Of a stretch of DNA of 64,000 bases, positions 7,240 through 64,000 are shown one piece after another. The DNA is from Stieleria varia (lineage in GTDB: Bacteria > Planctomycetota > Planctomycetia > Pirellulales > Pirellulaceae), in the NCBI RefSeq assembly GCF_038443385.1, contig NZ_CP151726.1, positions 7,440,001 through 7,504,000 on the forward strand. Reading direction: 5' to 3'. A model generated the notes under the pieces. It saw only the letters and a list, made by a program, of their open reading frames with translations, was not told where the DNA came from and made no database searches. Made by a program: the position numbers and the translations under genes. Every line of letters begins with the position of its first letter. Position 1 is the stretch's first letter.

Positions 7240-7244
7240 ATGAC

Positions 7245-9434: not shown

Positions 9435-9480
9435 CGACTTGGAAAGTCGAGCGACAATTGTCGTTCGACTTTCCAAGTCG
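9435..9480. repeat. 46-bp near-perfect palindrome of the GACTTGGAAAGTC family
   Basis: Each half is 23 bp and contains CGACTTGGAAAGTCG; the halves meet at CAATTG and differ at one paired position. It sits in a 401-bp spacer (9184-9584) between two same-strand genes; the rest of that spacer shows no gene. Confidence 0.85.
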
Positions 9481-9584
9481 AAAACGAACACCACCATACG
9501 CCCCGAGATGTAACAGTGGACAAGAAACGGCTCAATGAATAACGCCGAAACATCAAGTCAACGACAACGTTTTGACAGACGAGC

Positions 9585-10589: not shown

Positions 10590-10682
10590 GTGGGGCAGGC
10601 TGGGTCTAGTCGGTCGTGATTTGTTAGTGAATCGGGAATCAGTGAATTGGGAGAAGGCGACACCGAGAACGCATCGCCGAAA

Positions 10683-11072: not shown

Positions 11073-11115
11073 ATGTTGCGTTCCAGCCGTTTGCGTTTTG
11101 AGCTCTCGTGAGCCT

Positions 11116-12141
11116 TTATCTTAGCCCGCAAGCCGATTGGGCGCGGCCCAAGACTTTTGCGGCGACATTGCGAGCCTTTTCCGCTCCCTCTGCAAGCACT
11201 TGGTGGACGTAATCCACATTCTGTTCCAATTCTGCACGTTTTTCTCGGGCGTCGGCAAAGTAGGCTTCACTGGATTGGGCGATCGCCTTCTTGACGTCCC
11301 CGTAGCCGAAGCCTCCACGTCGGTACATCGCGGCCATCGCATCGATCTCGTCCGGGTTGCCGAATAATCGGAACAGTTGGAACAAGTGGTCGTCCTCGGG
11401 TTCTTTGGGATCCTCCATCGGCCGACTGTCCGTCGTGATCCTCATGATCTGTTTGCTGATTTTTTTCACTTCGCCGAACAGCGGCAGCGTGTTGTCGTAG
11501 CTCTTGCTCATCTTTTCGCCGTCGGTGCCCGGTACTTTGGCGCTGGCGTCCAACACATTGGCTTTCGGCAAGACAAAGGTGTCGCCGAACTGATGGTTGA
11601 AACGACTAGCGATGTCGCGGCATACCTCGATGTGCTGAACTTGATCGGCACCCACCGGCACCAGTTGGCTGTCATAGGCAAGGATGTCTGCGGCTTGCAA
11701 AACCGGATAAGTAAACAACCCCACGTCGGCCGGCAATCCTTTCTCAACCTTTTCTTTGTACGCCACGCAGCGTTGCAGCAATCCCATCGGCGTGCCGCTG
11801 AGCAGCAGCCAGCACAATTCGCTGACCTCGGGGATGTGCGACTGAACGAACAAGGTTGCTTTGGTCGGGTCCAGTCCCAACGCCAGCAGATCCATCGCGG
11901 TGTCGAGCACATTCTGACGCAGCACGGCGGCGTCTCGAACGGTGGTCAATGCGTGCAGGTCGGCGATGAAGTAGTAGCCTTCATTGGCCTCTTGCAGATC
12001 GATGTACTGACGGATCGCGCCGAAGTAGTTGCCCCAGTGCGGTCGTCCGGTCGGCTGGATCCCTGAGAGAACGCGTAAGGGACCCTTGGCGGATTTCTCG
12101 GTTGGCTCGGATGGGGACACGGGACGATCAGCGGACGACAT
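11116..12141 (-). CDS. trpS: Tryptophanyl-tRNA synthetase
   Basis: Class I aminoacyl-tRNA synthetase charging tRNA-Trp. I start at the ATG at 12141 (MSSADRPVSPSEPTEKSAKG), which has GAGG about ten bases upstream; the frame is open to 12324 but the extra residues look unlike TrpRS. The 341-residue protein shows the HIGH-type motif as PTGRPHWGNYFGA, the tryptophan-pocket region 'VGADQVQHIEVCRDIASRFN' and the KMSKS loop in GEKMSKSYDN. A 20-residue Ser/Pro-rich leader precedes the catalytic domain. No leader peptide or T-box was recognised upstream (12142-12431). Confidence 0.94.
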   Translation of the reverse strand: MSSADRPVSPSEPTEKSAKGPLRVLSGIQPTGRPHWGNYFGAIRQYIDLQEANEGYYFIADLHALTTVRDAAVLRQNVLDTAMDLLALGLDPTKATLFVQSHIPEVSELCWLLLSGTPMGLLQRCVAYKEKVEKGLPADVGLFTYPVLQAADILAYDSQLVPVGADQVQHIEVCRDIASRFNHQFGDTFVLPKANVLDASAKVPGTDGEKMSKSYDNTLPLFGEVKKISKQIMRITTDSRPMEDPKEPEDDHLFQLFRLFGNPDEIDAMAAMYRRGGFGYGDVKKAIAQSSEAYFADAREKRAELEQNVDYVHQVLAEGAEKARNVAAKVLGRAQSACGLR

Positions 12142-12431
12142 GAAAGAATCCTCAAACGGATCTTCCGAGCATTGCTGTCGTCGTAACGATTCGACAGGAC
12201 GCTCGGAATGGGGCAGCAATTTAGGACCGAGAATTGTGGTCGATTCGACGCAGAAAACAACGCCGGGAGCGGCAAGCGACTGATTTGCGTGCATTTCCTG
12301 GGAATTACACCTTGGGGAATCCACGCCAACGGTGCGAAAACCCGGCCGGGGTACGTAGAATCAACGAATGCCATCCGTGGCGAAACGCTTTGCTGCTGTC
12401 TTATCTAATCCAACCTCCCTGAGAGCTTGTC

Positions 12432-14213
12432 ATGCTGATTCGTTGCCTATTGATTGCCATCGTTGTCGTCGCGACCTGGAGCGGAGCGGCCCGCACCGGT
12501 TCGGCGCAGAACGGCCAATTGATCGAAGGACTCTTTCGGACGTTGGCGGAAAGTCAACTCGAACGCGAGCGACAGAAACGTGCCGAAGCCGAAGAGCGGG
12601 CGCGACGCGAAGCAATCCAACGCGAACAAGAATCCAGGCGGGATCCGTACGAAGTGCGTTTGCCCAGTGGATTCGGTGTCCCGCAACCGAACTTGCCCGC
12701 ACGTCCGCCAGTTGGCACGCCTCCTGGGGCTCCCATCAGGCCGGATCGCGGGCCGGAATTAGGCTCGATCAATGTGCGGAGTGAAAAGGCGGCCCAGTAC
12801 GCGCAGAACCTGGTTGCGTTCAATCAATCGTATTCGCAATTGGTCGCCGAGTTGCGTTCTGCCGCGACGCGAAACGCTGAACTGCGTACGTTGATGCCAC
12901 AAGTCTATGAGGTTTCCGCATCGGGACGAACGTTGCTCAGGCAGTGCGATGGACTGAGCGTTCTCTCGCCAATCATTCCCAGCCATCAGGAATGGGACAG
13001 TCGCTGGCGTAACATTTCGTTTCAACTGCGCAGGGTCGGTGGGCTGAGCGACAGTTGCAACGATGCCATTCGCACGTGTGATCAACTTTGCACTGCCATG
13101 AGCAGACAACTGAACATCCAACCACAGTTCGATCGGATCGCGTTACGAGATCAAATGACGACCGCTGCGGCGCACATGCAAACTTTGATGGACGATTTGG
13201 AACTGTCTTCGATTCCGCGGGACCAGTGCCATCGGCTGGAGCATGACTGTCGATTGTTGAGGCAGCAACTGCTGGCCGATGCACAACGGATCGACCGCTA
13301 CGGGTACAACGAATGCGTTTCCAAGTTCAGTGACTTTGCCTCCCGTTGGCGAGCGTTCGGCGCGCAGGCCTACGCGTTGGGCGACGCGCACATCGCTCGA
13401 CGTTTGGATCGGATCAGCGAGTGTGGCGAAGCGACTTATGAATTGTTGTGGATCCCGCCGCCGTCGTCGGTGACCGAAATCGGTCCAATCGCGACACGGC
13501 TGAAACAGAAGTTGGATTTGGTGACGGAAAAGATGACGCTGCGGGCGCTGACCAGCCTGCCGCCGGGTGATCAAGTCCGAGTGTTGGAATCGGTGCGCCA
13601 GTTGACCCAGCAGTCCGTACGCTTCACCAACCTCGCCACTTCGTCGCGTCCTCAACGAGCAGAATTGCAGTCGGCCTTCCGATCACTCGATGAAACCTGG
13701 TGTGCCGGGCAGCCTTTGTTCGTCAGGATTCCCACGGTCAACTTGGGGCACGTGGCCGAGATCAACCGAAGCTGCGAGCAACTGCGCGAAGCGTTGAACT
13801 TGCGTGCCGACTATGCGTCGCCGGTACGGTTGGCGGATTTGGTGCACTCGGCTGCGGCGTTGGAGGGGACCGCAGAGGTATTGCGTGACCATGTGTTGCG
13901 AAATCAGCGATACTTTCAGCCGAACGAGTTTCGGGCTGGGATCACCGAAAACGTGCAGAGTTTTTATCGCCATGCAAAAGAAGTCCACGAGTTGCTCAGC
14001 CGCGGTGACCGTATGAACGACCGCCGGCACATGGCGGAACTGCAGGAGGAGACTGGTCACCTGCTGGAGGATTGGAACCAATTGGCGCCGCAGCTCAGTC
14101 AGATTCAGAATCATGGGTTGTCGGGGCCGCGTGCCACCCAGATCCAGCAAACCGGGCAGGAGGCCGTCCCACCGATCGCTCAGCTCGCAGCCGCGTTGCT
14201 GGACCAAAGCTGA
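12432..14213 (+). CDS. Secreted alpha-helical protein of unknown function
   Basis: A 593-residue protein with a signal peptide (MLIRCLLIAIVVVATWSGAA, cleavage likely after 'GSAQ'). A charged coiled coil follows (about 40-75, rich in Glu, Arg and Ala), then a Pro-rich linker (about 78-112) and a long helical region to the end, with frequent Leu/Arg/Gln and several Cys residues (for example in 'LRQCDGLSVL' and 'SDSCNDAIRTCDQLC') that could form disulphides outside the membrane. I recognise no enzyme motif or family. Downstream, ispG lies in the same direction after a 240-bp spacer with a strong hairpin, so it is probably a separate transcript. Confidence 0.75.
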   Translation: MLIRCLLIAIVVVATWSGAARTGSAQNGQLIEGLFRTLAESQLERERQKRAEAEERARREAIQREQESRRDPYEVRLPSGFGVPQPNLPARPPVGTPPGAPIRPDRGPELGSINVRSEKAAQYAQNLVAFNQSYSQLVAELRSAATRNAELRTLMPQVYEVSASGRTLLRQCDGLSVLSPIIPSHQEWDSRWRNISFQLRRVGGLSDSCNDAIRTCDQLCTAMSRQLNIQPQFDRIALRDQMTTAAAHMQTLMDDLELSSIPRDQCHRLEHDCRLLRQQLLADAQRIDRYGYNECVSKFSDFASRWRAFGAQAYALGDAHIARRLDRISECGEATYELLWIPPPSSVTEIGPIATRLKQKLDLVTEKMTLRALTSLPPGDQVRVLESVRQLTQQSVRFTNLATSSRPQRAELQSAFRSLDETWCAGQPLFVRIPTVNLGHVAEINRSCEQLREALNLRADYASPVRLADLVHSAAALEGTAEVLRDHVLRNQRYFQPNEFRAGITENVQSFYRHAKEVHELLSRGDRMNDRRHMAELQEETGHLLEDWNQLAPQLSQIQNHGLSGPRATQIQQTGQEAVPPIAQLAAALLDQS

Positions 14214-25089: not shown

Positions 25090-25779
25090 CGGTTCGCGTT
25101 TGAGCGGTTGATGGTGTTCGTTTTCGAATCGGAGACCGTGCGGAAAATTAGTGTCGCGAAATCCACGTAGCAATCATCGCTTCGCGTGATTTTGGCAACG
25201 AGAGTGGACACTTATTCTCCAACCCGACCACGAAGTGGTTAAACAACATAGCCTGGGGTCGCAGCGAAGCCAGCGCACCCCGGGTTAGCTCCGATAGCTG
25301 CGGAGCAGCGACAGCATACAGCATGGGGTGCCAACCCCATGTTTCTGCAAGCGAGTCCGCCCAGAAGCTGCGGAGCAGCGACAGCATAAAACGTTTGGTG
25401 TAGCCCACAGCACGCGGTGGTCCGGATGCAATCTGTCGCCGCTCCGCGGCTTGTTGGCGGCGTCGGGCGGTGTTCACCTGGGGCTCGCGCCCCAGGCTGT
25501 ATGCTGTCGTCGCATCCGCGACTGAGGGGATTGCTGGGAACGTGAAGAACCGGCGATGATCGCTGCGCTCTATCGCCGGCTACCGTCTGTGACCGCTTCA
25601 CGGTCATATGCAGATAACCCAGGGCGTCGCTTCGCTTTGCCCTGGGCTTTCTTGTCCATGCCCTTTCAGGGCATACGCGATCAGCTCCTTTTCATCATCT
25701 CCCCCAGCTTCATCGGCAGATGACGACAGAAACCTGCGGCACACGGCTCTACCACGTCCCCTGATTTTGCAGCAACACG
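25090..25779. repeat. Cluster of short palindromes and direct repeats between phoU and the Rieske gene
   Basis: No credible gene lies in this 690-bp gap. A 23-bp direct repeat whose core is GCTGCGGAGCAGCGACAGC occurs exactly at 25295-25317 and 25366-25388, with a diverged inverted copy near 25498-25520. Short palindromes include CATGGGGTGCCAACCCCATG (25322-25341), CCTGGGGCTCGCGCCCCAGG (25479-25498) and TGACCGCTTCACGGTCA (about 25590-25606). The layout looks like a graveyard of REP-type elements. Confidence 0.7.
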
Positions 25780-51604: not shown

Positions 51605-54600
51605 ATGAAAGAAATCAATAGCGACGATGCTCCGATGGATGAGGGATTTCCTGGTGAATTTCTGGGGGAATCGCAGGAGGATTTCCAAGAGAAATCGCCG
51701 GAGAGTTCGCCTGAGGCACACGGCAGCGATCATTCGTCCAGCGAAGTAGTGTCCGGCGAAGTAGTGTCCGGCGAAGTAGTGTCCGGCGAAGTAGTGTCCG
51801 GCGAAGTAGTGTCCGGCGAAGTAGTGTCCGGCGAAGTAGTGTCCGGCGAAGTAGTGTCCGGCGAAGTAGTGTCCGGCGAAGTAGTGTCCGGCGAAGTAGT
51901 GTCCGGCGAAGTAGTGTCCGGCGAAGTAGTGTCCGGCGAAGTAGTGTCGATCGAGGCTGTTTCCAATGATTCACCGAACGATGATTCACCGAACGATGAT
52001 GTGACGTCCCAACAAGACGACTCCGCAACTCCTGCGACATCACACCGCGCCGCTCGGCAGTCCGCGATCGCGATTGCCGTTTTGCTTTCCGTTCTCACCG
52101 TGGCTCTGAATTGGCCGTTGCGATATGCGGAGATCGGATCATTGGGGGGCATGGATGCGGTGGTTGATTTTGATTCATCGGGCTTTTACGTCATGCCCAG
52201 GATGGCGGGCTGGCCTTGTCATTACTGGATCCACTACGACGAACAGGGCAACGTTCCCGCAGTCAATGTTTTTTCAGGGATCGGATTGCTAATCAATGTC
52301 GTGTCAGGCGCGTTGGTCATCGGATTGATCTGCTGGTACCTGTACCGTCGCGGACTTCGTCAAGTCGGCGGCCGCAAATCCAATATCCGGATTGCGGACC
52401 TGTTGCTGATCACACTCCTGCTGGCTGCCCCGTTTGGTTGGTGGCAATATCAAAAGACACAGCAGCAAGCCGTGGTTGAGATCGTGCAGCGATATGCTAA
52501 GGATGGTGACTCGGTTCATGTCTCGGCATGGGTGCCTGCTCTGCTACGAGATCGGCTTCCGCAATGGCTGTCCAGCAATTTGCAGCGAGTACGTGGTGTT
52601 CGATTGGAGCATCCCAGTGATGCGAAGGTCGCCGAGGCAGTTGCGATCCCCACCCTGACGCACTTCCGCGTCGGTGGTGGAGAGTACGACTTGTCGTTGC
52701 TCGATGATTTGGGGCGTCGCATTCATTTGATCGATGTCAGGATATCAGGACGCCAGTTGGACACGCCGACGGTCGAGATGCTGGCGTCGAATCCACGAGT
52801 ACACTCGTTGAACCTGATGCGGACCAACGTGGATGCTGGTGTGTTGAACGCAATGGGCCAGTTGCCCGCTCTACGACGCCTGAATCTGATGCACTCCGAT
52901 GTGCATTTGGCCGATCTTGGTCGCCCGCCCTGGGCAGACTGGATCGAGATCATGATCTTGCCTCATCCGGAGTCTGGAGGCGCCGATGAATTGATCCTTG
53001 ATCAATGGCCGGAGCTACAAGAATTGAACATCAACGAATTGGATGTTCCACTGAACGCCACGGCGATGAAGGTTCAGTTGTCCGGGCTGCCGAAGCTCAC
53101 GACGTTGCGATTGGATCGCTTTCAAGCGTTTGATTTGACGCTCACCGATTTGCCCAAGCTGACCGTAGTGAGCAGTCAGAAGGACAACTGGACCTCCAGG
53201 ATCGCACGCGGTGGCAAGATGCCAGGGTTGAACTGGCTGAAGCGATTTCACGGTCGCAAGCTTCCCGAGTTGGAAACTTTGGAGGCGTTCGTCTGTGATC
53301 TGGAATCGCTTTCGATCAACGAAGTCCCCATGCTCAGGGATCTAGGGCTCGGGGTTTATCAGATCCATGCCGAGCAGGGATGGAATGAGCGGGGCGGGCC
53401 ACAGGAAGCCTCGACTTATCCGGAACAACTCGACCCAGAGGTTGCCAAGGCGATCATCCAGGGAGTTGGCAGCAGCGATGGACCGGCAACGATTGACTTA
53501 GATGCCGTTCCGCTTTCCGGAGTCGACCTGACGCCACTGGCTGGCAATCAACAGATTCAGAATCTGTACCTGGGATACACCAACACGAATCTGAAACAAT
53601 GGAAACAGCTCGCGGGACTGAAAAGGCTCAAGCAACTGCGACTCGATGGAAACATGGTTGCGATGGACGACGTCGAGATTCTGTTGGATCAGTTTCCTGA
53701 GCTTGAGTCTTTGGAGTTTGCCAACGACGGGCGGCGAGGCTCTGGTATGTTCATGTCCTACCGCAGTGGAGGCGATTTGGAATTGATCGGTCGCCCGAAT
53801 TTGAAATCGATCACGATGGACCATTCGACGGGCGGAATGTTTGAGACGGTCCGCGTCGTCGACATGCCGATGCTGCAAGCCGACTTGGATTTTCAGTGGA
53901 TTTCTCAAGAGCTGGAGATTCGCAATTCACCTTCCCTGACGGGACTTTCGATCGCAACGCCGCTGCCAGAGAAGATCACGCTCCGCGATCTGAGGGACCT
54001 CAATCATTTTGCCGTGGGTGGACAAGCCGTCGACGATGCGTTTCTGTCTCAAATCGCTGGCTGTGACAAGCTGTCAAAACTGACGCTGGCCTACGTCAGC
54101 GCCTCCGAAGATGCGTTGTCGAAATTGCCACTGCAATCCATCACCCATTTGTACCTGCCAGGTTGCAATGTCGACGATGCGGTGGTCGAAAAATGGCCGG
54201 AGATGACTTCACTGACCTCGGTGGACTTGAGTGAAACCAAGATCACTAACGCATCGCTGAATCGATTGCTTCATTCTAAACTGCTAACCAACGTCAATTT
54301 GAATCACTGCCCCATTGATCCCGCCGCTCTCAATATCTTGGCAACCAAAGACAGTCTCACCTCCCTTTCGCTCGCCGGCATCGGATTGGATGCCAGCACA
54401 TTGGAATCGCTGCTGCAAGTGAGCCTGCTGGAGTATATTAATGTTTCGGGAACCACAGTGCCGGATGATGTATTGGATGCTTTAGCGAATGTGCAGTTTT
54501 CTCCGAAGCTACTGGTGCTGCGTGATTGCAAGTTGGACTCTCAGCGATTGCTGGCGTTGATGCAAAAACAACGAGGATTGTTGATTGACCCGACGGGCAG

Positions 54601-55063
54601 CAATTTAGCCACCGAGGTTTACACTCGTCTGCTATCACAACAACGCATCGTCGATGAAGACGAGTTCAATCAACGTAGGGCAATGGAGGCAGCGCTGGCT
54701 GCCGCTCAACCAGGGATTCGAGTGGGATTTCCAGCGACAGGGACACATGATTCCATCATCGACACGGACAGCTTTTCACCGGACGGCCAGTTCGGAGAGC
54801 GGGCGATGGCCGCCAGACAAAAAGCGATACAACGACGACAAAGTGAATTTGGGAGGCCGTCGACGACTGCACCATCGACCGGCGTGAGCGGTTGGCTTCA
54901 GCGTATGCTGCTGGGCAGTTCAACAGACGAATTACCAAGCGATTTTGACGAAGATGCGACCCCGCCAGGCGAATTGAGCGAAACCGAATCAGTGGATGCC
55001 AATTACAGCGAAACTGAATCAGTCGACACCGATCCAACCGTAGAGAGAGAGGCAGCGGAATGA
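51605..55063 (+). CDS. Large membrane protein with a VVSGE repeat tail and LRR-like domain
   Basis: A 1152-residue protein not recognised as a known family. The N-terminal part (1-45) is acidic, then a VVSGE repeat (about 49-115), a Ser/Asp-rich linker, and three hydrophobic helices: about 153-172 (IAIAVLLSVLTVALNW), 225-246 and 262-280. From about 340 to 1010 it shows irregular leucine-rich repeats, for example 'LPALRRLNLMHSDV', 'LKRLKQLRLDGNM' and 'LTNVNLNHCPIDPAALNIL', so a horseshoe-like binding surface outside or at the membrane is likely. The end is acidic. Base composition is AT-richer than neighbours (29 of 60 GC at 54481-54540). The stop overlaps the next gene's ATG by four bases, so both are coupled. 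Confidence 0.78.
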   Translation: MKEINSDDAPMDEGFPGEFLGESQEDFQEKSPESSPEAHGSDHSSSEVVSGEVVSGEVVSGEVVSGEVVSGEVVSGEVVSGEVVSGEVVSGEVVSGEVVSGEVVSGEVVSGEVVSIEAVSNDSPNDDSPNDDVTSQQDDSATPATSHRAARQSAIAIAVLLSVLTVALNWPLRYAEIGSLGGMDAVVDFDSSGFYVMPRMAGWPCHYWIHYDEQGNVPAVNVFSGIGLLINVVSGALVIGLICWYLYRRGLRQVGGRKSNIRIADLLLITLLLAAPFGWWQYQKTQQQAVVEIVQRYAKDGDSVHVSAWVPALLRDRLPQWLSSNLQRVRGVRLEHPSDAKVAEAVAIPTLTHFRVGGGEYDLSLLDDLGRRIHLIDVRISGRQLDTPTVEMLASNPRVHSLNLMRTNVDAGVLNAMGQLPALRRLNLMHSDVHLADLGRPPWADWIEIMILPHPESGGADELILDQWPELQELNINELDVPLNATAMKVQLSGLPKLTTLRLDRFQAFDLTLTDLPKLTVVSSQKDNWTSRIARGGKMPGLNWLKRFHGRKLPELETLEAFVCDLESLSINEVPMLRDLGLGVYQIHAEQGWNERGGPQEASTYPEQLDPEVAKAIIQGVGSSDGPATIDLDAVPLSGVDLTPLAGNQQIQNLYLGYTNTNLKQWKQLAGLKRLKQLRLDGNMVAMDDVEILLDQFPELESLEFANDGRRGSGMFMSYRSGGDLELIGRPNLKSITMDHSTGGMFETVRVVDMPMLQADLDFQWISQELEIRNSPSLTGLSIATPLPEKITLRDLRDLNHFAVGGQAVDDAFLSQIAGCDKLSKLTLAYVSASEDALSKLPLQSITHLYLPGCNVDDAVVEKWPEMTSLTSVDLSETKITNASLNRLLHSKLLTNVNLNHCPIDPAALNILATKDSLTSLSLAGIGLDASTLESLLQVSLLEYINVSGTTVPDDVLDALANVQFSPKLLVLRDCKLDSQRLLALMQKQRGLLIDPTGSNLATEVYTRLLSQQRIVDEDEFNQRRAMEAALAAAQPGIRVGFPATGTHDSIIDTDSFSPDGQFGERAMAARQKAIQRRQSEFGRPSTTAPSTGVSGWLQRMLLGSSTDELPSDFDEDATPPGELSETESVDANYSETESVDTDPTVEREAAE
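51736..51960 (+). repeat. 15-bp coding tandem repeat (VVSGE units)
   Basis: Thirteen exact copies of GTCCGGCGAAGTAGT run from 51751 to 51945, bordered by a one-mismatch copy (51736-51750) and a decayed copy (51946-51960). Near-identity points to recent expansion. Copy changes keep the frame; the repeat is also open in antisense frames. Confidence 0.95.
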
Positions 55064-57336
55064 AGATTCCTTCGTCCCACCGATCCGTTTGTTCGTTACT
55101 GATCTCCGGGTTCTTGGCTGTCTGTGTCGGCTGTGGTGAGCCGATCTATCATGCGGTCGACTATCAGCGTCCCAGCTTGGACATCAAATGGAGTGAACCG
55201 TCTGACAGTTCACGCTACGAATGGCCGCTGAAGAGGCAGAATTACATTGTCACCAAGCCGCCACCGATGGCCTATTTGACATCGTTTTCCGAGAAGTTCT
55301 CGTTCGACAATGTGTATGAGGAGCCGTTGGTTCCTTGGGACGATCTCCCGTTGGGGGACGAGGCCAAAGCGTTCTTGGCCGAGATTTACGATCCGTTGCC
55401 AACACAATTGGAAACCTCTCTAACGATCGATCCCAACGAGATGACGGGCGATCAGGCGTTCGATCTCTCACTCGACGGCAAGCGATTGGTGTTGCTGCGC
55501 AATACACAATTGGTGCTCTACAACACGGAGACGAACAAGCGAATCGGCAGCATGCCATTGCCTGGCGACTGGTCCAGTGCTCCACCTCATGCTGTCCGCT
55601 TTTGTGGCCGCAGCAAAGATTTTCTCGTTGCATCCACGAAGCAAATTTGTCGTATAAGCGGCAAGGACGGTCAGATCAGCAGCCAAGTCGATGGCTGCAA
55701 CGCGTCAATCGTTCGATGGGACATCACACCCAATGATGATGCGATGGTGTTGCTAAGCGACGAAGGCAAGATCTACTTGGGGCATCCAGATTTGACGTAT
55801 TTCTCTCCCGCCAATGTGGAGGATCGCACTTACACCGACGTCGCAATCACAGAGGATGCCAGTCACGCAATTGCGGTTTCGGAGTCCAGTGGTGCTTATT
55901 TTTCGCACATTCTGAATACTAAAGACCATCGAGTCACTGAATTTCACACGATCGATGCGGAAGTTGTGCATAAAGCAATTCGAGTCGTGGGTGGCTTGAA
56001 CGCTGATGCCTGGCTGGACCAGGCTACATGGGTCGTGGCGCTAGAACGCAACAAAGAAGGGTCCGATGAAAAAGAAAACTATCTGGATCTGCGTTGGGGA
56101 TACTGGCGTCCTCACTTAGCCGTCAGTTGCACTCGCGACGAAAAGACGAACTGGTTCTTGACCGTCGGTATGCGGATCATCAATGATCAAGCCCAGTGGA
56201 TCCTGTTTGATTTTGGTCCCAAGAGCAGAAACCACTCTGTCGCGATACCGCTGCAGGAAAAGCCCCGTCGGATGGTTGCCAGTCGCAATGGTGGACTGGT
56301 GGTGCTGCTTGACTCCGCAGGGTTGCATCTCCATCCACGTCGTGCTTGGCGATCCCCAAGGAGAATCGATATACCGGAACTTGGCTACGCCGTCGTCAGA
56401 ACGGCCGATGTCAAGCAAATCGAGTTGCTCTACGAAGCACTCGGACGCCAGAAACGTTGGTCCGCTGGCAAATGCCCCAGTGAGCTACAGGACTACCTCC
56501 TCAGTTTTGCATCAGAATTATGGAGATCGTTGGATCGAAAAGGAGATGAGATCTCGGAGCAGGACAAGCGAGTGTTGCAAAGCCTGGTTCAGTGGCGAGA
56601 GGAAGGCAGCGTATTGTCAAAGACCGTTTCGGGGTACCGACATGCGATGGATGCTTGGGAAGCACGCGGCAATGGGATGAGCGATTCCGTTTCACAGGGA
56701 GGCTGGAAAACGTTTGAGGAATCCAATCGCAAAGCGCAAGCAGATCTCAAGGCGGCTGTGGAGTCAGACAATCCGCCATCACTCGCACTGCTGCAGTTGA
56801 CGCAAGTCAGCTTGGATCTGGACGGCGATCTGACGGCTGTTGATCCCCTGGCCAGACGATTTGTCGAACTGTACCCAGACAACTTGCGGATCGCGGGTTG
56901 CCTTGGCATCAAGCTGTTGCCCCAGTGGCATGGCGCTCCAGGTGACGTTGTCAGCTTCTTTACCGCACATTCGAAACTCTACGAAGGCAAGCACTCCGAC
57001 ATCGTCTATGCATTGATGGCCGGCCGATTGTCTCGACACCTCTACAATGACTCAGCACTGGATTGGAAAAGTTTTGATATCTCGCGCATGATGTCGGGCA
57101 TCACCGAATACGATCGGCAGAATTGGCCGGTGGAATACGACATGTGGTACGCCAAGGAATGCTTGAGCCGATTGGCGACAAGGGAACAAAACGAACAGAT
57201 GCTACGTTACCTGATGAAATCGGTCGCCGTTTTCCCCGTCGTCGACAAGAACACATTCTGGTACACCAGAGACACGGTGAGTGTTCCCAAACAAATCTTT
57301 GATGATGTGCTGGCTCGTGAAAACAAGTCGCCGTGA
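55060..57336 (+). CDS. Propeller-like lipoprotein coupled to the LRR-like gene
   Basis: A 758-residue lipoprotein of unknown function. The signal peptide ends in a lipobox (FLAVCVGCGEP). The N-terminal half has repeated beta-rich segments such as 'DLSLDGKRLVLLRNTQLVLYNTETNKRIGS' and 'WDITPNDDAMVLLSDEGKIYLGHPD', consistent with a WD40/beta-propeller. The C-terminal half (from about 500) is helical and TPR-like ('LALLQLTQVSLDLDGDLTAVDPLARRFVELYPDN'). Its ATG lies in the overlap ATGA with the preceding stop, so the two proteins are made together and may form one envelope complex. The GC content is near 50% in the line I counted (56521-56580). Confidence 0.78.
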   Translation: MKIPSSHRSVCSLLISGFLAVCVGCGEPIYHAVDYQRPSLDIKWSEPSDSSRYEWPLKRQNYIVTKPPPMAYLTSFSEKFSFDNVYEEPLVPWDDLPLGDEAKAFLAEIYDPLPTQLETSLTIDPNEMTGDQAFDLSLDGKRLVLLRNTQLVLYNTETNKRIGSMPLPGDWSSAPPHAVRFCGRSKDFLVASTKQICRISGKDGQISSQVDGCNASIVRWDITPNDDAMVLLSDEGKIYLGHPDLTYFSPANVEDRTYTDVAITEDASHAIAVSESSGAYFSHILNTKDHRVTEFHTIDAEVVHKAIRVVGGLNADAWLDQATWVVALERNKEGSDEKENYLDLRWGYWRPHLAVSCTRDEKTNWFLTVGMRIINDQAQWILFDFGPKSRNHSVAIPLQEKPRRMVASRNGGLVVLLDSAGLHLHPRRAWRSPRRIDIPELGYAVVRTADVKQIELLYEALGRQKRWSAGKCPSELQDYLLSFASELWRSLDRKGDEISEQDKRVLQSLVQWREEGSVLSKTVSGYRHAMDAWEARGNGMSDSVSQGGWKTFEESNRKAQADLKAAVESDNPPSLALLQLTQVSLDLDGDLTAVDPLARRFVELYPDNLRIAGCLGIKLLPQWHGAPGDVVSFFTAHSKLYEGKHSDIVYALMAGRLSRHLYNDSALDWKSFDISRMMSGITEYDRQNWPVEYDMWYAKECLSRLATREQNEQMLRYLMKSVAVFPVVDKNTFWYTRDTVSVPKQIFDDVLARENKSP

Positions 57337-58490: not shown

Positions 58491-58889
58491 TCACCACTTC
58501 GCTGGTCTTGGAAAGCCCCAGCTGGCGGCCAGGGCGTCGGCGGCTTCTTCGCGGTCGGTGATTTCGCCCCAGCCGCCGTTTCGCAAATAAGCATGAGCGA
58601 ACTCGTGGGCGATCACATACCAGGCAAACGCTTCCTCGGCCTGGGCGAGCTTTCGTCTCAGCACGACGCATCGGCTGCCGCTGCCCGTCGGACTGGGCAT
58701 GTCCATCATCAGACTCCAGCCCTTGCCCGGCTCGTAGTTGTCCACCGTGACGCGAAATCGGGGATCCTCCAGGAAATCACGTTGGACCTCCAGCGGTAAT
58801 GAATGCAACACGTGGTTCACACGCTGAGGCAGCGGCTCGTGGCCGACAAACGATTCCAAGTAGATCTGAAAGATGTTGAAGCTCCCCAT
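58491..58889 (-). CDS. Small HExxH zincin-like protein, unknown function
   Basis: A 132-residue protein with no signal or membrane segment. It carries HEFAH (95-99), the HExxH zinc-metallopeptidase motif, followed 15-20 residues later by 'DREEAADALAASWGF', where Glu115 or Asp118 could be the third zinc ligand; the spacing and the 'EAADALA' wording recall the ImmA/IrrE and related minimal peptidases. The short N-terminal part has no known fold that I recognise. It follows the YebC gene in the same direction with a gap of 27 bases and is probably co-transcribed. Confidence 0.72.
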   Translation of the reverse strand: MGSFNIFQIYLESFVGHEPLPQRVNHVLHSLPLEVQRDFLEDPRFRVTVDNYEPGKGWSLMMDMPSPTGSGSRCVVLRRKLAQAEEAFAWYVIAHEFAHAYLRNGGWGEITDREEAADALAASWGFPRPAKW

Positions 58890-58916: not shown

Positions 58917-59639
58917 TCAGCGAGGCAGGATCGCGTTGTGATAGATGTCTTGGACGTCGTCGCAATCGTTCAACATGTCGATGAACTTCTCGAACATCGG
59001 AACGTCATCCGGGTCGATCTCGGTGGTGGTTTGTGGGATGAAGCTGATTTCATCGGCATCGAAGTGGACACCGGGATACGCAGCGAGCAATGCCTGCTTG
59101 GTCTTGTGGTGCTCGGTCGACGGAGCATAAACGATCAGTTGCCCGTCTTCGTTTTCAACGTCCACCACGTCGACTTCGGCCTCCAGCAATGCCTCCAAGA
59201 CTTCTTCGGCATTGTCACCTTTGAAGGAAAGGATGGCAAAGTGATCAAAGCCGTGAGCAACCGAACCCGGTGCACCGAACTTTGATCCGGTCTTGCTAAA
59301 ACAATTGCGGACGTCGGTGATGGTTCGGTTGTTGTTGTCCGTCAAGCAATCGATGATCACGCTGCAGCCGCCGGGGCCGAAACCTTCGTAGCGAGCCGGC
59401 ACGTAATCCTCGCCGCCGACACCCTTGGCTTTTTCCAAGGCCTTCTCGATCACGTGCGCGGGCACTTGGTCTCGTTTGGCTTTATCGATCAAAGCCCGCA
59501 GAGAGGGATTGCAGTCCGGATCGGCACCGGAGTTCTTTGCCATGACGTAGAGCTGTTTGCCATATTTTGAATACACCTTCGTCTTCTGTGCCGCCGTCTT
59601 GGCCATCGACACCTTACGGACTTCAAACCCTCTACCCAT
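58917..59639 (-). CDS. YebC/PmpR-family protein
   Basis: A 240-residue YebC/TACO1-type protein. The family has been described both as a transcription regulator and as a factor for translating proline-rich stretches; which applies here is not shown by the sequence. The N-terminus [29 protein letters not shown] resembles the YeeN branch rather than classical YebC. '[36 protein letters not shown]' and '[29 protein letters not shown]' are the conserved blocks. It lies 95 bases downstream of the TIR pair, all on the minus strand. Confidence 0.9.
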
Positions 59640-59734: not shown

Positions 59735-60355
59735 TCACGGCTCAGGTCTTTGCCGTTTGGGGCTCAGACGCGGGAGCTTTGATTGTTTTCGCATCCGCAA
59801 AAGTTCAGACAGTAGACGCGTCCCAGAGAGTTGCTTGTTCGTCTTTCTGTTGAACATTTCGACGAGGTGCTGAAGTTCTCGAGGCGACTGACTGAGGCGA
59901 TCTACCGGTATGCAAAGGTCACGATAAATCTCCCTTAGCACCTGACGTTCATCGTCCGCAATTGGTTCTAAGTTTCGGCGGATTTGGGTCAGAACCTCGT
60001 CGATTCGATTGCGAGGATAGACTTGATAACTTCCGAGTGCCTCGGGGACATGTGTAGAGGCCGGCCCGTTCAGCAGCACAAAGATTGGTTTATTCCAAGC
60101 CGTTGCGGCCCCCAATTCAACCATGCCCATTGCATCAGGCGTAGAGTCTGATGATACAATGACAATGAATGCATGGCACTCTGCAAGTGCGTCCCAAATC
60201 GCCTTGCTGATTTCTTGTCCGACCGGGACGCTTGCGTCGTGAAACGGCTGCAGACCCTCTGCCTTCAACCGATCTGCGATATCTGCAGCAAAATCGCGAT
60301 CACGAGAGCTGTGAGAAACGAATACGTCAAAGGTTGGAGTTGCTGTAGCCGTCAT
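59735..60355 (-). CDS. TIR-domain protein with a helical C-terminal tail (TIR gene 1)
   Basis: A 206-residue protein. Residues 8-130 form a TIR domain: 'FDVFVSHSSRDRDFAADIADRLKAEG' (box 1), 'AFIVIVSSDS' and 'MVELGAATAWNKPIFVLL', where Glu80 aligns with the catalytic Glu of TIR NADases. A second part (about 135-200) is helical, with 'LREIYRDLCIPVDRL' and ends 'LLSELLRMRKQSKLPRL', a basic tail that could bind DNA, RNA or a partner; I do not recognise it. It overlaps TIR gene 2 by four bases (ATGA), so translation is coupled. GC is lower than in neighbours: 28 of 60 bases at 60121-60180 against 36 of 60 at 59401-59460. Likely a defence or signalling enzyme. Confidence 0.85.
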   Translation of the reverse strand: MTATATPTFDVFVSHSSRDRDFAADIADRLKAEGLQPFHDASVPVGQEISKAIWDALAECHAFIVIVSSDSTPDAMGMVELGAATAWNKPIFVLLNGPASTHVPEALGSYQVYPRNRIDEVLTQIRRNLEPIADDERQVLREIYRDLCIPVDRLSQSPRELQHLVEMFNRKTNKQLSGTRLLSELLRMRKQSKLPRLSPKRQRPEP

Positions 60356-60789
60356 TTTTTTACCCGACGCTTCAATTCGGCTAGGTACGTGTCAAAGTCG
60401 TTGATGTGAAACGCCTTCTTGCCCTCAATTATATCAGGAATCGCGTCAAACGTGACATGGCAAAGCACCGGAACAATTCGGTAGTCCTTCCGTCGGCCCC
60501 ACGCAGCTCCAACTTCGAGCAAGACCCACGGTCGTTCGATCGATTCTGGTGTGAGCAAGACCACCAATTCGCGTGACACCTGTATTTCGGTGCGTATCGA
60601 CTGCGGAATGCTATCGCCACCGTTAATGTCCCGGTCGTCGCGGAAAGAGGTTGCCCCAGTTGCGTCAATCTTTTCACAGAAGGTAGTTGCGATCCACTTG
60701 TCGGCCGTAGCATGGCTAACGAAGACCTGATACTCCGGCTTAGCTCGAGTCCTCTTGGTCGTTTTCTTCGTCGATTTTCGCTTCACCAT
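60352..60789 (-). CDS. Small TIR-domain protein (TIR gene 2)
   Basis: A 145-residue protein that is almost all TIR domain, with a Lys/Arg/Thr-rich N-terminus (1-18). It shows 'YQVFVSHATADKWIATTFCEKI' (box 1), 'FRDDRDINGGDSIPQSIRTEI' (BB-loop region with Asp-Ile) and 'ERPWVLLEVGAAWG', in which Trp88 and Glu92 match the WxxxE pattern of NAD-cleaving TIR domains. It is upstream of TIR gene 1 and overlaps it by four bases. GC is low (29 of 60 at 60421-60480). The ATG at 60789 has no clear Shine-Dalgarno site. It could be the regulator, the second half of a heteromeric enzyme or an effector on its own. Confidence 0.85.
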   Translation of the reverse strand: MVKRKSTKKTTKRTRAKPEYQVFVSHATADKWIATTFCEKIDATGATSFRDDRDINGGDSIPQSIRTEIQVSRELVVLLTPESIERPWVLLEVGAAWGRRKDYRIVPVLCHVTFDAIPDIIEGKKAFHINDFDTYLAELKRRVKK

Positions 60790-61118
60790 CGATCAGTGTC
60801 TTGAGCACGTACGAGCGTAGACGAGTCGTAAGGCATGGTTTTGGCTCTTTTGGGGGCTCGGACTCAGCATCGCGATGCTCGTGTTTGTCACCACACACCA
60901 GTTCATAGTCTATTGGCGACTTCTTGACACTGTCAAACCTTCATTGCCATTCAAGTCAGCGTGGATTTCGAATTGCGTAATCAATGGTGCATAAGACTAG
61001 GCACTGTTGCCCGTCCGAGCGTGATGATGTCGCGGGCAAGAATGCCCAAGCTACGGATGGGACTTCACGCCCGGAACAAACTCAAACAACCAGAGCCAAT
61101 CAAGTCGATCGCTCACGA
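60790..61118. other. Spacer upstream of the TIR pair, downstream of the sulfatase
   Basis: These 329 bases probably contain the TIR-pair promoter. A 12-bp palindrome, GCATCGCGATGC, lies near 60868. No inverted repeats, tRNA or integrase gene that would mark an island border were found here. Confidence 0.45.
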
Positions 61119-62498
61119 TCAACGATTGGGGGCCGTGCGGAATTCGGTGAGCCATTGCTCACGTTGTTCTTGCAGACGCTGGACAACATCCGGATGTTGT
61201 TTGGCTAGATTGGTCGTTTCGCTGGGATCGTTTTTGAGATTCACTAGAAAGAATTCCTCTGGCAGCCTGCCCCCGTTGACGCGGCCTTCTTGTGGCGCCG
61301 TGGTGTCGAGGGGATTTCCGATCAGTTTCCATTCACTGTCGCGGACCGCCCACTGAGGATTGTTTCCGCCGCCGGTGTGCCAGTAAAACGTTTCACGCGG
61401 TGCGGGGGCATTTTCCGCAAGCACTTGTTTCATCGAAACGCCGTCGAGATGCACATCAGGTGTCGCGACGCCGCAGACATCACAAAGCGTTGGGAGCCAA
61501 TCGCACGCCGTCATGAATTGGTCACGGGTTTGTCCGGCCTTCCATGACTTGGGATAACGCACGACCGCGGGCACTCGAATGCCGCCTTCGAACAACGAGA
61601 ACTTTGCGCCGCGATAGGGGCCAGCGTTTCCTCCGCCGCCGAAGGCACGTGTTTCGGTGCTGTGTCCGTGATCGGGTTGATAGATGACGATCGTATTGTC
61701 CGCTTGTCCCGACGCATCGAGGTGCTCGATGACTTTGCCGATCCGTTCATCCATCGTCGACAGGAACGCGCAGTACTCACGGCGTGGAGAGGGCAGATCG
61801 CGGTACTCGTTGAGCCAGAACTCGGTGCCCTGGTAAGGATAGTGGGGTGCGTTGAACGCCCAGTACAACAACCACGGTTTATCGTCCGATTGATCGATGA
61901 ACTCGTTGCATTTGTTCACCATCATGTCGGGAAAAAACTCACCGCCGCGATGGATTTCACGACCGTTGTCCCACAGGTCGTGCCGATTGGGACCGCTCCA
62001 GAAAAAGAAGTGCGAGTAGTTGTCGATGCATCCCTGCAAGTGTCCGAACCAATTCTGGAATCCTTGCCCGGAGGGAATCTGCTCAGGTGTCGTGCCGAGG
62101 TGCCACTTGCCGACCTGTCCGGTGCGATAACCGGCCTGCTGAAAGACCTCCGCGATCGTGATCTCGTCGGCGTCGAGCGGACCGTTGCTCGGTTGGCCCG
62201 CTCGAATCGGGAAACGACCGGTCAGCAGGCCGACACGACTGGCCGAACACACCGGTGCGGGTGCGTACATGTTGGTCAAGCGAATCCCTTGGGCGGCAAG
62301 CCGGTCCATGTTGGGCGTTCGCAGGTCCGCGACACCGAAACAGCTCATGTCGATCGAGCCTTGATCGTCCCCGTAAATGATCAATACATTGGGCCGGTCC
62401 GCGGCCCCCAAGTCAGAAACGTTCAAAATGATGGCCAAGGTGATGACCAGGGCGACCGACAAAACTTGGCCGAGGAAATAAAAAGTGCTGTGTTTCAC
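61119..62498 (-). CDS. Exported sulfatase (CxAxR formylglycine type)
   Basis: A 459-residue type I sulfatase, second in the window. I take the GTG at 62498 because it starts a signal peptide (MKHSTFYFLGQVLSVALVIT, cleavage near 'LGAADRP'); the frame extends further upstream. The formylglycine site is CSASR (Cys84-Arg88), with Ala in place of the usual Pro. Metal-binding 'VLIIYGDDQGSIDMSCFG' and 'IYQPDHGHSTE' are visible, as is 'GQVGKWHLG'. The C-terminal part ends with 'EFFLVNLKNDPSETTNLAKQHPDVV', a typical tail. It is divergent from the DUF1501 gene at 62641. Confidence 0.9.
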   Translation of the reverse strand: MKHSTFYFLGQVLSVALVITLAIILNVSDLGAADRPNVLIIYGDDQGSIDMSCFGVADLRTPNMDRLAAQGIRLTNMYAPAPVCSASRVGLLTGRFPIRAGQPSNGPLDADEITIAEVFQQAGYRTGQVGKWHLGTTPEQIPSGQGFQNWFGHLQGCIDNYSHFFFWSGPNRHDLWDNGREIHRGGEFFPDMMVNKCNEFIDQSDDKPWLLYWAFNAPHYPYQGTEFWLNEYRDLPSPRREYCAFLSTMDERIGKVIEHLDASGQADNTIVIYQPDHGHSTETRAFGGGGNAGPYRGAKFSLFEGGIRVPAVVRYPKSWKAGQTRDQFMTACDWLPTLCDVCGVATPDVHLDGVSMKQVLAENAPAPRETFYWHTGGGNNPQWAVRDSEWKLIGNPLDTTAPQEGRVNGGRLPEEFFLVNLKNDPSETTNLAKQHPDVVQRLQEQREQWLTEFRTAPNR

Positions 62499-62640
62499 GG
62501 GGTGGCTTCGTTGGCGAGGTGGGAGTCGGGCGAGTAGTCTACGGTGATCAGAAAGCGAGGCGATCGGGTATATTGTACGAGATGCCGTTCTTCGAATTGA
62601 CGAAACGTGATCGAAACTTTTGCGAATACGAAGCCATTCC

Positions 62641-64000
62641 ATGTCCATTGATCTGACCAACCTGACCCGCCGCTCGTTCTTTGGTCAAAGCGCCGACCGA
62701 TTGGCAGCGGTCGGTCTGGGAGCCGCCGCGCTGGCCGCATTGGACCAGCAAACCGGGTACGCTGCGCCCGCCGATGGGGCAACACTCGCGCAACGCAGCG
62801 GCGGTTTGCCGGCACTGCCTCATCACGAGCCCAAAGCGAAACGCGCGATCTATCTGTTCATGTCCGGCGCCCCGAGCCAGATCGACATGTGGGATCACAA
62901 ACCGCAGATGGGCGAGTGGTTCGACAAGGACTTGCCGGACTCGATCCGACAAGGTCAACGGTTGACGACGATGACCAGTGGACAAGCTCGCTTTCCCATC
63001 GCGCCGAGCATCTACAAATTCGCGCCGCAGGGAGCTGCCGGAACGATGGTCAGCGAACTGCTGCCTCACACGGCAACCAAGGTCGATGAGATCGCGTTGG
63101 TCAAATCGATGTACACCGAAGCGATCAATCATGATCCGGCGATCACCTACATCTGCACCGGGAATCAACTGCCCGGAAAAGCGAGTTTGGGATCTTGGCT
63201 GAGCTACGGGCTGGGCACCGAGAACGAGAACCTGCCGGCTTTCCTGGTCATGACCGCGTCCTGGACCGGACGTAAGGAGGCGCAAGCGTTGTACAACAGG
63301 TTGTGGGGCAGCGGATTCTTGCCGAGCAAGTACCAAGGGGTGGCGCTGCGAAGTAGCGGTGATCCGGTGCTGTATCTTTCCAATCCCGATGGTTTGGACG
63401 CCAAAGTCCGGCGTCGGATGCTCGACTCGCTTTCTCGTCTGAATCGTCAGACGGCACAGACTGTCGGTGATCCGGAAACGGTGGCCAGGATCGCGCAGTA
63501 CGAGATGGCGTTTCGCATGCAGACCAGCGTGCCGGATTTGACGGACATCAGTGACGAACCGCAATACATCTTGGACATGTATGGCCCCGATGTGACCAAG
63601 CCCGGGACGTTTGCAAATTGTTGCCTGCTGTCTCGGCGAATGGCCGAACGTGGCGTCCGCTTCACACAGATCTTTCACCGGGGTTGGGACCAACATGCCA
63701 ACTTGCCCGGTGATTTGCCCAATCAGTGTCGCGATGTCGATCAACCATGTGCCGCACTGCTGACCGATTTGCGTCAGCGGGGAATGTTCGACGACACGCT
63801 CGTTGTTTGGGGAGGCGAATTTGGCCGGACGATTTACTGCCAGGGCAAATTGACCAAGGAAACCTACGGCCGAGACCATCACCCCAAATGCTTTTCGATC
63901 TGGCTGGCCGGTGCCGGAATTCAAGGCGGCGCGGTCCACGGCGAGACCGACGATTTTAGTTACAACGTGACGAAAGATCCTGTGCACATCCGCGATCTCA
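62641..64000 (+). CDS. DUF1501 protein, 3' end outside window
   Basis: A DUF1501 family member, cut by the right edge after about 453 residues. The ATG at 62641 gives [20 protein letters not shown], a twin-arginine type signal (RRSFF then a hydrophobic stretch [11 protein letters not shown]). '[21 protein letters not shown]' is the family's metal-site start (GxPSQxDxWDxKP), and '[16 protein letters not shown]', '[21 protein letters not shown]' are the closing blocks; the domain is related to alkaline phosphatase/sulfatase folds. In planctomycetes it is often paired with a DUF1549/DUF1553 gene; here its 5' neighbour is a divergent sulfatase. Confidence 0.92.

What the first reader, a model, noticed from the sequence alone, without database searches (positions are those of the whole stretch)
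59735..60789. Two overlapping TIR-domain genes as a candidate compact defence module
Two separate TIR proteins are encoded back to back with a 4-bp overlap, so they are made in linked amounts. Both retain a Glu at the position used by NAD-cleaving TIR domains (Glu80 and Glu92; the second also has the WxxxE Trp). Neither has the usual partners of described TIR systems nearby: no Thoeris SIR2-like ThsA, no CBASS cyclase, no prokaryotic Argonaute. The pair is AT-richer than its flanks, in keeping with horizontal gain. A two-TIR arrangement without a third gene would be a less studied design.
Basis: partly seen in the sequence, partly recalled or inferred. Interest (0 to 1): 0.75.

Follow-up and report, generated by a model that had tools for sequence, protein, structure and literature searches.

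The report
Two-TIR operon of planctomycete bacteria
Two small overlapping bacterial genes, each encoding a TIR domain of the kind that destroys or converts the vital molecule NAD, travel together as a unit in many planctomycete bacteria and are probably a compact self-sacrifice defence against viruses that has yet to be tested.

Summary
TIR_up (145 aa) and TIR_dn (206 aa) overlap in ATGA, both match Pfam TIR_2, and the pair is AT-rich. It is a real unit: among 396 genomes of the order, TIR_dn's tail occurs in 12 and strong TIR_up hits in 11 of those same 12, the twelfth being cut at a contig edge. In 33 loci from a scan of all species held, TIR_up lies directly upstream, whole or in part, in 31. 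No third gene is conserved, and the host genome shows no SIR2_2 (ThsA-type) protein. Three clues go further: TIR_up is disrupted in 7 of 29 evaluable loci while TIR_dn stays open (some may be sequencing errors); one locus has a ThsA-like SIR2 gene in TIR_up's place; in three loci the adjacent DNA methyltransferase carries TIR_dn's tail domain. Best reading: TIR_up is an NAD-consuming effector, TIR_dn its sensor/regulator. Defence is inferred, not shown; identified neighbours are mostly housekeeping genes. New variant of a known kind.

The parts
60352..60789 (-). TIR_up: 145-aa TIR-only protein, first gene of the pair; likely NAD-consuming effector
   Evidence: ORF; TIR_2 61.0 bits, ThsB_TIR 26.9 bits (cut-off 21.2); Foldseek best hits PdTIR, RUN1 TIR, BtpA, SPARTA TIR; 23-sequence alignment A6
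60733..60789 (-). basic, low-confidence N-terminal extension of TIR_up (residues 1-19; K+R 9, D+E 1)
   Evidence: K+R outnumber D+E in all 23 members of A6; residues 1-15 pLDDT below 50
60514..60528 (-). W88xxxE92 motif of TIR_up (Trp codon 60526-60528, Glu codon 60514-60516)
   Evidence: W88 and E92 invariant in 23 of 23; aligned with the W and E of AbTIR
60352..60355 (-). ATGA overlap of TIR_up stop and TIR_dn start
   Evidence: 4-nt overlap in 13 of 25 pairs with both ends visible, 14 nt in 7, 1 nt in 2, short gaps in 3
59735..60355 (-). TIR_dn: 206-aa TIR protein with C-terminal helical tail; likely sensor/regulator, possibly also an enzyme
   Evidence: ORF; TIR_2 57.1 bits, Nuc_deoxyrib_tr 26.1 bits (below cut-off 28.8); AF2 pLDDT 85.8; Foldseek TIR-1, SARM1, TIR-STING, MAL, DNPH1, query TM-scores about 0.4-0.5
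60116..60118 (-). Glu80 codon of TIR_dn
   Evidence: invariant in the 12 sequences of A1 found by the tail, a search that does not use this motif; also 33 of 33 in A5, but there the search pattern required it
59765..59962 (-). tail domain of TIR_dn (residues 132-197; helices 134-147, 151-154, 158-172, 178-190)
   Evidence: apart from TIR_dn copies (its own training family) the tail HMM finds only three neighbouring DNA methyltransferases in 13,908 ORFs of the fetched loci and window
60907..60936 (-). promoter-like site upstream of TIR_up (TTGACA-18-TAGACT), weak
   Evidence: 4 sites in the region against 1.5 expected; not evidence of function

Best explanation
The pair is a two-gene NAD-dependent abortive-defence module. 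TIR_up is the toxic effector, a TIR NADase (inferred from fold, WxxxE and Phe23). TIR_dn holds TIR_up in check or switches it on, through TIR-TIR contact or through a small molecule made at its own Glu80 site, and its helical tail is the input end that senses infection or docks to another protein or to DNA (inferred). Translational coupling at ATGA keeps the two in fixed ratio (inferred from the overlap). Shown here: pairing and order across the phylum, purifying selection on both, conserved active-site residues, no third conserved gene near the pair, no SIR2_2 match in the host genome, repeated disruption of TIR_up with TIR_dn kept open, one replacement of TIR_up by a ThsA-like SIR2 gene, and sharing of the tail with adjacent DNA methyltransferases in three loci. 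Not shown: catalysis, toxicity, phage protection, complex formation.
For: Pairing: tail in 12 of 396 order genomes, strong TIR_up hits (149 bits or more) in 11, each of the 11 with TIR_up directly before TIR_dn; the twelfth, G044, starts at a contig end. 33 loci: TIR_up upstream in 31 (22 intact, 2 cut by a contig edge but open, 7 disrupted), replaced in 1 (L115), not visible in 1 (L117). Co-inheritance: distance correlation 0.69 over 22 pairs, 0 of 2000 permutations as high. TIR_up: F23, S25, H26, D30, W32, D51, D52, R53, D54, W88, E92 invariant in 23 of 23; nearest solved folds include NADase TIRs. TIR_dn: E80 12 of 12 in the tail-found set. Asymmetry: TIR_up disrupted in 7 of 29 evaluable loci, TIR_dn in 0 of 32 (Fisher one-sided p = 0.0036); without the three frameshift loci 4 of 26 against 0 of 32, p = 0.035. 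A further case is a stop inside TIR_up in G768, a single-contig genome. Partner swap: L115 has a 378-aa SIR2_2 protein (8e-10) directly before TIR_dn, best PADLOC match ThsA (3.5e-6), and no TIR_up elsewhere in that genome at 1e-10 (the single hit is TIR_dn itself). No SIR2_2 in the window's genome, control rings. Patchy gain and loss: partial or damaged pieces in G001, G003, G005, G022.
Against: Identified neighbours are mostly housekeeping genes (sulfatase and YebC here; menaquinone genes, a tRNA synthetase, transporters elsewhere), not defence islands. No match in 50,697 phage and 72,556 plasmid records (TIR_dn at 1e-3; TIR_up at 1e-15) or in viral contigs (A5, A6), so no sign of mobility beyond low GC and patchiness. 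The SIR2 swap is a single locus; the one relative of that SIR2 found (1 of 265 genomes) has no TIR_dn beside it. Some TIR_up frameshifts come from metagenome assemblies and may be sequencing errors; in L093 and L114 the frame stays open from the first part of TIR_up into TIR_dn, so a fused product is possible there and, in L093, it would still hold E92. The loci were found through TIR_dn, which biases against damaged TIR_dn; pieces of TIR_dn do exist in G022, G001, G005. In staphylococcal Thoeris the two TIR genes without thsA are called incomplete (figure legend, PMC12578639). The role split effector/regulator is inferred.
Confidence: 0.45

Rival explanations
1. Thoeris-like two-TIR signal generator (as ThsB1/ThsB2 of Staphylococcus): one TIR senses, the other makes a cyclic ADP-ribose signal, and the effector is coded elsewhere in the genome and is not of the SIR2 type.
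For: Sau-Thoeris uses two TIR proteins, ThsB1 sensor and ThsB2 catalyst (PMC11312562 passages). TIR_up scores over the Pfam ThsB_TIR cut-off (26.9 vs 21.2 bits). In L115 a ThsA-like SIR2 gene stands before TIR_dn.
Against: No SIR2_2 match in the host genome (control rings). No third gene kept near the pair in the 34 loci clustered. STALD also without a match, but its control did not ring. Effectors of other kinds were not sought.
Confidence: 0.17
2. Toxin-antitoxin pair: TIR_up is a toxin and TIR_dn a dedicated antitoxin-like partner; defence is secondary.
For: Two small coupled genes; TIR_up absent or disrupted in 8 of 30 loci while TIR_dn is open; no intact TIR_up without TIR_dn among the strong TIR_up hits of 396 order genomes.
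Against: TIR_dn keeps its Glu80 in all 12 tail-found members, unexpected for a pure neutraliser. No plasmid or phage copies found. Toxin-first order is less usual (recalled).
Confidence: 0.18
3. TIR_dn is a nucleotide-processing enzyme (deoxyribosyltransferase or DNPH1-like) and the pair is a nucleotide-metabolism or signalling unit, not immunity.
For: TIR_dn weakly matches Nuc_deoxyrib_tr (26.1 bits, below the 28.8 cut-off); Foldseek lists DNPH1 among the hits with E below 0.001. Identified flanking genes are mostly housekeeping.
Against: The TIR_2 match is far stronger (57.1 bits). Patchy distribution (intact in the own genome only, pieces in three others, of 14 in the genus) does not fit a metabolic core role.
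Confidence: 0.1

Closest known systems
Staphylococcal Thoeris (ThsA/ThsB1/ThsB2), PMC11312562 and PMC12578639
   Same: Two separate TIR proteins in one operon; TIR catalytic Glu with a facing Phe is kept; division of labour between the two TIRs is plausible.
   Different: No ThsA gene beside the pair and no SIR2_2 match in the genome. TIR_up is TIR-only with a basic N-terminus and TIR_dn has a C-terminal helical tail.
SPARTA (short Argonaute with TIR-APAZ)
   Same: TIR NADase fold; TIR_up's fold hits include SPARTA TIRs; PADLOC TIR-Argonaute-partner models match the TIR part of both proteins.
   Different: No Argonaute gene among the neighbours scanned with Pfam; neither protein has the length or a Pfam match for an APAZ part.
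Single-gene TIR defence proteins (SpbK, PDC-S66 of PADLOC, retron-TIR)
   Same: Best PADLOC model for both proteins is PDC-S66; NCBIfam Retron_TIR_antiphage matches far below its cut-off.
   Different: Two genes, no fused sensor or reverse transcriptase domain.
Effector-associated domains (EADs) of conflict systems in multicellular prokaryotes, PMC7159879
   Same: Small all-helical domain; copies on products of adjacent genes (tail on TIR_dn and on the neighbouring methyltransferase in L105, L106, L112).
   Different: No Pfam EAD model matched TIR_dn at E 0.01; the shared copy is on a DNA methyltransferase; the window's own locus has no such neighbour.

Membership tests
TIR_2 domain family (PF13676) | profile match above the curated cut-off | tested here: met
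   61.0 and 57.1 bits, cut-off 28
NAD-cleaving TIR domains | catalytic Glu in the helix after strand C, facing Phe or Tyr on strand A | tested here: met
   by sequence: TIR_up E92 and F23 23 of 23; TIR_dn E80 12 of 12 in the unbiased set A1, F12 or Y12 33 of 33 in A5. The pocket geometry was not measured
NAD-cleaving TIR domains | NAD hydrolysis or cyclisation | not testable with these tools
   needs an enzyme assay
Thoeris | ThsB TIR protein | tested here: inconclusive
   TIR_up passes Pfam ThsB_TIR (26.9 vs 21.2) but TIR_2 fits far better (61.0); TIR_dn does not match it at 0.01; best PADLOC ThsB E = 3.8e-8 for TIR_up and 4.5e-6 for TIR_dn
Thoeris | ThsA effector in the operon | tested here: not met
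   none among the seven neighbours scanned and no SIR2_2 match in the genome with a control that rings; STALD none, control silent; L115 is the one related locus with a ThsA-like gene
CBASS | CD-NTase gene in the operon | tested here: not met
   no such match among the seven neighbours scanned, 51.6-64 kb
SPARTA | short Argonaute with APAZ | tested here: not met
   no such match in the pair or the seven neighbours scanned
EAD-type adaptor domain (for the tail) | small helical domain with a second copy on an adjacent gene product | tested here: met
   met in three loci (two lineages), not in the window
EAD-type adaptor domain (for the tail) | homology to a described EAD family | tested here: not met
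   no EAD model among Pfam matches of TIR_dn at E 0.01; other EAD alignments were not at hand
Type II toxin-antitoxin | neutralisation of one product by the other | not testable with these tools
   loss pattern only

The most novel reading that the evidence does not exclude
A methylation-linked TIR immune system: the tail domain is a common recognition or docking module of a solitary N6/N4 DNA methyltransferase and of TIR_dn. The methyltransferase would mark self DNA, or bind TIR_dn through its own tail copy, and TIR_dn would release or activate the NADase TIR_up when unmarked (phage) DNA or a displaced methyltransferase is met, turning DNA self/non-self status into NAD loss instead of DNA cleavage. 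Evidence: the methyltransferase is the nearest upstream neighbour in four loci, L105, L106, L112 and L116. The TIR_dn tail profile finds, besides TIR_dn itself, only the methyltransferases of L106, L112 and L105 (2.8e-5, 5.1e-5, 4.3e-4) among 13,908 ORFs, and in the 30 rows shown the reverse profile finds only these and TIR_dn. The extra C-terminus has no match in plasmid or phage records at E 1, where the best-listed homologues cover the catalytic part only (rows end at 243-267 of 346; six plasmid records and one phage record cover 80% or more and were not opened). Against: L116's tail is not detected by the profile, L105 and L112 are sisters, the window has no such neighbour, and a tail-bearing methyltransferase elsewhere in its genome could not be sought.
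Probability: 0.15. Interest if true: 0.9.

Novelty: new variant of a known kind. Interest (0 to 1): 0.64.

Why it matters
In the two-TIR Thoeris system seen, a third gene (ThsA) does the killing. A two-TIR unit that stands alone would show that a TIR-TIR pair can itself be a complete switch, a bacterial counterpart of paired plant TIRs (the RPS4/RRS1 TIR heterodimer is among the fold hits), and the tail shared with DNA methyltransferases gives a directly testable guess at the trigger. It also adds a candidate system in Planctomycetota.

Tried and rejected
Third conserved gene: clustering of 438 neighbour ORFs (TIRs included) in 34 loci gave no family in more than 4 loci besides the TIRs; rejected. 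Defence-island context: PADLOC tallies of 240 of the 241 ORFs of 110 aa or more within 5.5 kb (L114:2-2467 was left out) print only the first 25 of 140 and of 101 families. Shown are, in A3, single ORFs matching GajB/RT-helicase (the UvrD helicase of L087; UvrD is also a housekeeping family), a cytosine-type methylase (MTase_II, DruM, DrmMII), PD-T4-6 and mad6 models, two pVip matches (radical-SAM type), and in A4 the four methylases; scattered, not a general island. Single Pfam scans of 30 neighbours: 23 matched a family (4 DNA methylases, 1 UvrD helicase, the rest metabolic, transport, signalling or other), 7 matched none. Mobile carriage: phages, plasmids and viral contigs negative. SIR2 as a regular partner: one locus only (L115); the relative in G508 is not beside TIR_dn. 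Empty-site comparison in the genus through YebC: no other genus member had a match at the strict limit used (1e-60), so the site was not compared. Structural identity of the tail: profile search of solved structures gave nothing below E 0.08 (BCL10 at 0.12 is treated as chance). TIR_up-TIR_dn fusion: no designed-looking fusion seen, but in L093 and L114 a frameshift in TIR_up leaves one open frame from its first part into TIR_dn. Other two-TIR neighbours (L072 after a patatin gene, L073, L131) are more distant TIRs without the tail.

Conditioned result: the E80-G82-A83-A86-W87-K89 invariance in the 33 loci of A5 is built in by the search pattern; only the 12 tail-found sequences are a fair count, and there W87 is not invariant. 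That scan used this one pattern, so relatives without it would be missed.

Papers: PMC11312562, PMC12578639, PMC7159879 and PMC13142454 seen as passages; PMC13174449 as abstract and outline; all others as search listings only. In the listings I saw no paper on a two-TIR operon without a third gene; the lists are capped and the library lacks most subscription journals.

Full report
What is there. On the - strand of the window, TIR_up (60352-60789, 145 aa) is followed by TIR_dn (59735-60355, 206 aa) with an ATGA overlap. Upstream on the same strand lies a sulfatase gene (61119-62660), downstream YebC (58917-59639), a 132-aa ORF and an EamA transporter. The genome is one contig of 9.72 Mb with 14 TIR_2 matches, two of them this pair. 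The pair has 52.0% GC against 57.2% for the window; 1.2% of windows of that size are as low.

The two proteins. Both match TIR_2 well above the cut-off and each other at 23% identity. TIR_up is a bare TIR domain with a K/R-rich N-terminus (K+R outnumber D+E in 23 of 23). Its invariant positions include F23, S25, H26, D30, W32, D51-D54 (DDRD), W88 and E92 in 23 of 23 sequences. Its model (pLDDT 76.4) is nearest to PdTIR, the RUN1 TIR, BtpA and SPARTA TIRs; E92 and W88 align with the Glu and Trp of AbTIR. TIR_dn is a TIR domain plus a four-helix tail (pLDDT 85.8), nearest to C. elegans TIR-1, SARM1, TRR-2, TIR-STING and MAL, with DNPH1 also listed; query TM-scores are modest, about 0.4-0.5. Its Glu80 aligns with Glu92. 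In the 12 sequences that the tail brought in, E80, G82, A83, K89 and P90 are invariant. In the larger set A5 E80 is 33 of 33, but the search pattern demanded it, so that count proves nothing.

Conservation as a unit. A search of 396 genomes of the order with the tail alone gave 12 genomes. The TIR_up profile gave 16, of which 11 score 149 bits or more; the other five (64-105 bits) I take for other TIR subfamilies. The 11 are the 12 minus G044, whose TIR_dn lies at a contig start. TIR_up is directly upstream of TIR_dn in each of these 11. I take the two 396-genome draws to be the same set because size and handles agree; they were not compared genome by genome. One scan of the 84,980-species collection, with a single peptide pattern, gave 33 loci, all with planctomycete names except one bin named Nealsonbacteria. 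TIR_up is intact upstream in 22, open but cut by a contig edge in 2 (L089, L104), disrupted in 7 (L090, L091, L093, L094, L098, L102, L114), replaced in 1 (L115) and not visible in 1 (L117). Of 25 pairs with both ends visible (the window and 24 loci), 22 overlap: 13 by 4 nt, 7 by 14 nt, 2 by 1 nt. Distances between TIR_up proteins and between TIR_dn proteins correlate (r = 0.69, 22 pairs, 0 of 2000 permutations as high). dN/dS against L087 is about 0.06 for TIR_up and 0.08 for TIR_dn. In the three comparisons with the window TIR_up has a two- to five-fold lower dN; in L105-L112 the two are equal (0.27, 0.26), and synonymous sites are saturated in several comparisons.

Distribution. In a phylum-wide draw of 392 genomes, 7 have TIR_up-profile hits and 6 TIR_dn-profile hits at 1e-15; in four of them (own, G492, G716, G768) both are adjacent. 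G493 has other TIR genes in a row; the hits in G508, G709 and G445 are weak. In the genus (14 genomes) the own genome alone has the intact pair; G001, G003 and G005 hold partial or damaged pieces, and so does G022 of the same family. No match in plasmids or phages (TIR_dn; TIR_up at 1e-15), nor for A5 or A6 in viral contigs.

No third gene. Clustering of neighbours in 34 loci found no family in more than four loci besides the TIRs. Family scans of the neighbours (tallies capped at 25 families) show mostly housekeeping functions: of 30 neighbours scanned one by one, 23 matched a Pfam family, among them 4 DNA methylases and 1 UvrD helicase, and 7 matched none. So this is not a defence-island gene set. 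A ThsA-type effector of the SIR2 kind elsewhere is unlikely: the genome has no SIR2_2 match, in a search whose control rings. The STALD search was also negative, but its control was silent. Effectors of other kinds were not sought.

Asymmetry of loss. Among evaluable loci TIR_up is disrupted in 7 of 29 and TIR_dn in 0 of 32 (p = 0.0036). The damage is frameshifts (L093, L094, L114) or internal or N-terminal losses (L090, L091, L098, L102). Without the frameshift loci it is 4 of 26 against 0 of 32 (p = 0.035). In L093 and L114 the frame stays open from the first part of TIR_up into TIR_dn, so a fused product cannot be excluded; in L093 that part includes W88 and E92. G768, a single-contig genome, has a stop inside TIR_up and an open TIR_dn. 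Cautions: the 33 loci were found through TIR_dn, some frameshifts may be sequencing errors, and related loci do not count as independent. No locus with intact TIR_up and damaged TIR_dn was seen. This is what one expects if TIR_up is the costly effector.

Partner swap. In L115 the gene directly before TIR_dn is a 378-aa SIR2_2 protein (8e-10), whose best PADLOC model is ThsA (3.5e-6). No TIR_up is found elsewhere in that genome at 1e-10 (the single hit is the TIR_dn ORF, cf. L160). SIR2 of ThsA is an NAD-consuming effector (PMC11312562), so the swap suggests that TIR_up fills the same post. It is one locus; in 265 phylum genomes one relative of this SIR2 was found, not beside TIR_dn.

The tail. 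A profile of the TIR_dn tail run over 13,908 ORFs of the fetched loci and the window finds TIR_dn copies and then only three proteins up to E 10: the N6/N4 DNA methyltransferases of L106, L112 and L105 (2.8e-5, 5.1e-5, 4.3e-4), the nearest upstream neighbours of the pair. Five shuffled sets gave a best score of 12.0 bits against 19.7-23.5 for the three. The reverse profile finds, in the 30 rows shown, only these methyltransferases and TIR_dn, and profile-profile comparison gives a probability of 96.7 on a three-sequence profile. The methyltransferase C-terminus alone has no match in plasmids or phages at E 1; the best-listed homologues of the whole protein cover the catalytic part and end at 243-267, though six plasmid records and one phage record, not opened, cover 80% or more. 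The methyltransferase beside the pair in L116 is related (42-51%); the profile does not detect its tail, although its BLAST alignment to L112 runs on into that part. L105 and L112 are sister loci, so the independent cases are two or three. The tail thus resembles in its behaviour the effector-associated domains described in PMC7159879 (passages), small modules with copies on adjacent genes, or it is a DNA-recognition module. The data do not decide.

How it most likely works. TIR_up consumes NAD when released or assembled; TIR_dn, made in fixed proportion, controls it and receives the trigger through its tail. Known two-TIR logic exists in staphylococcal Thoeris, where ThsB1 binds the capsid protein and recruits the catalytic ThsB2, and ThsA is the effector (PMC11312562 passages). 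Here the ThsA post seems to be filled by a TIR. Every biochemical step is inference.

Verdict. Observation confirmed; the interpretation as a defence module is plausible but untested; new variant of a known kind.

Noticed in passing
L105:6272-7327, L106:6322-7419, L112:6402-7442, L116:5829-7544: N6/N4 DNA methyltransferase is the nearest upstream neighbour of the TIR pair in four loci; three carry the TIR_dn tail domain.
   Followed up: partly
L115:6802-7938: ThsA-like SIR2_2 gene stands in place of TIR_up directly before TIR_dn.
   Followed up: partly
L093:7062-8606 and L114:7575-8630: A frameshift inside TIR_up leaves one open frame running from its first part into TIR_dn.
   Followed up: partly
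L131 (G493) 3925-9530: Cluster of a GmrSD-type restriction gene, two TIR genes (one ThsB_TIR type), an unknown 157-aa protein and two overlapping TIR genes.
   Followed up: partly
L072 (G026) 9354-13026: A second kind of two-TIR pair follows a patatin-like gene; the patatin protein's N-terminus looks by eye like the 157-aa protein of L131.
   Followed up: no
window 58491-58889 (-): 132-aa ORF with a HEFAH motif, perhaps a small zinc peptidase; only a weak PADLOC peptidase_U41 match (0.0021).
   Followed up: no
window 51605-57336 (+): 1152-aa leucine-rich-repeat protein overlapping by 4 bp a 758-aa protein with no Pfam match.
   Followed up: no
window 25477-25523 (+): Rfam match to Acido-Lenti-1 RNA (38.9 bits, gathering 37).
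   Followed up: no
G000 (whole genome): 14 TIR_2 matches in the host genome, two of them in open frames of more than 1000 aa.
   Followed up: no
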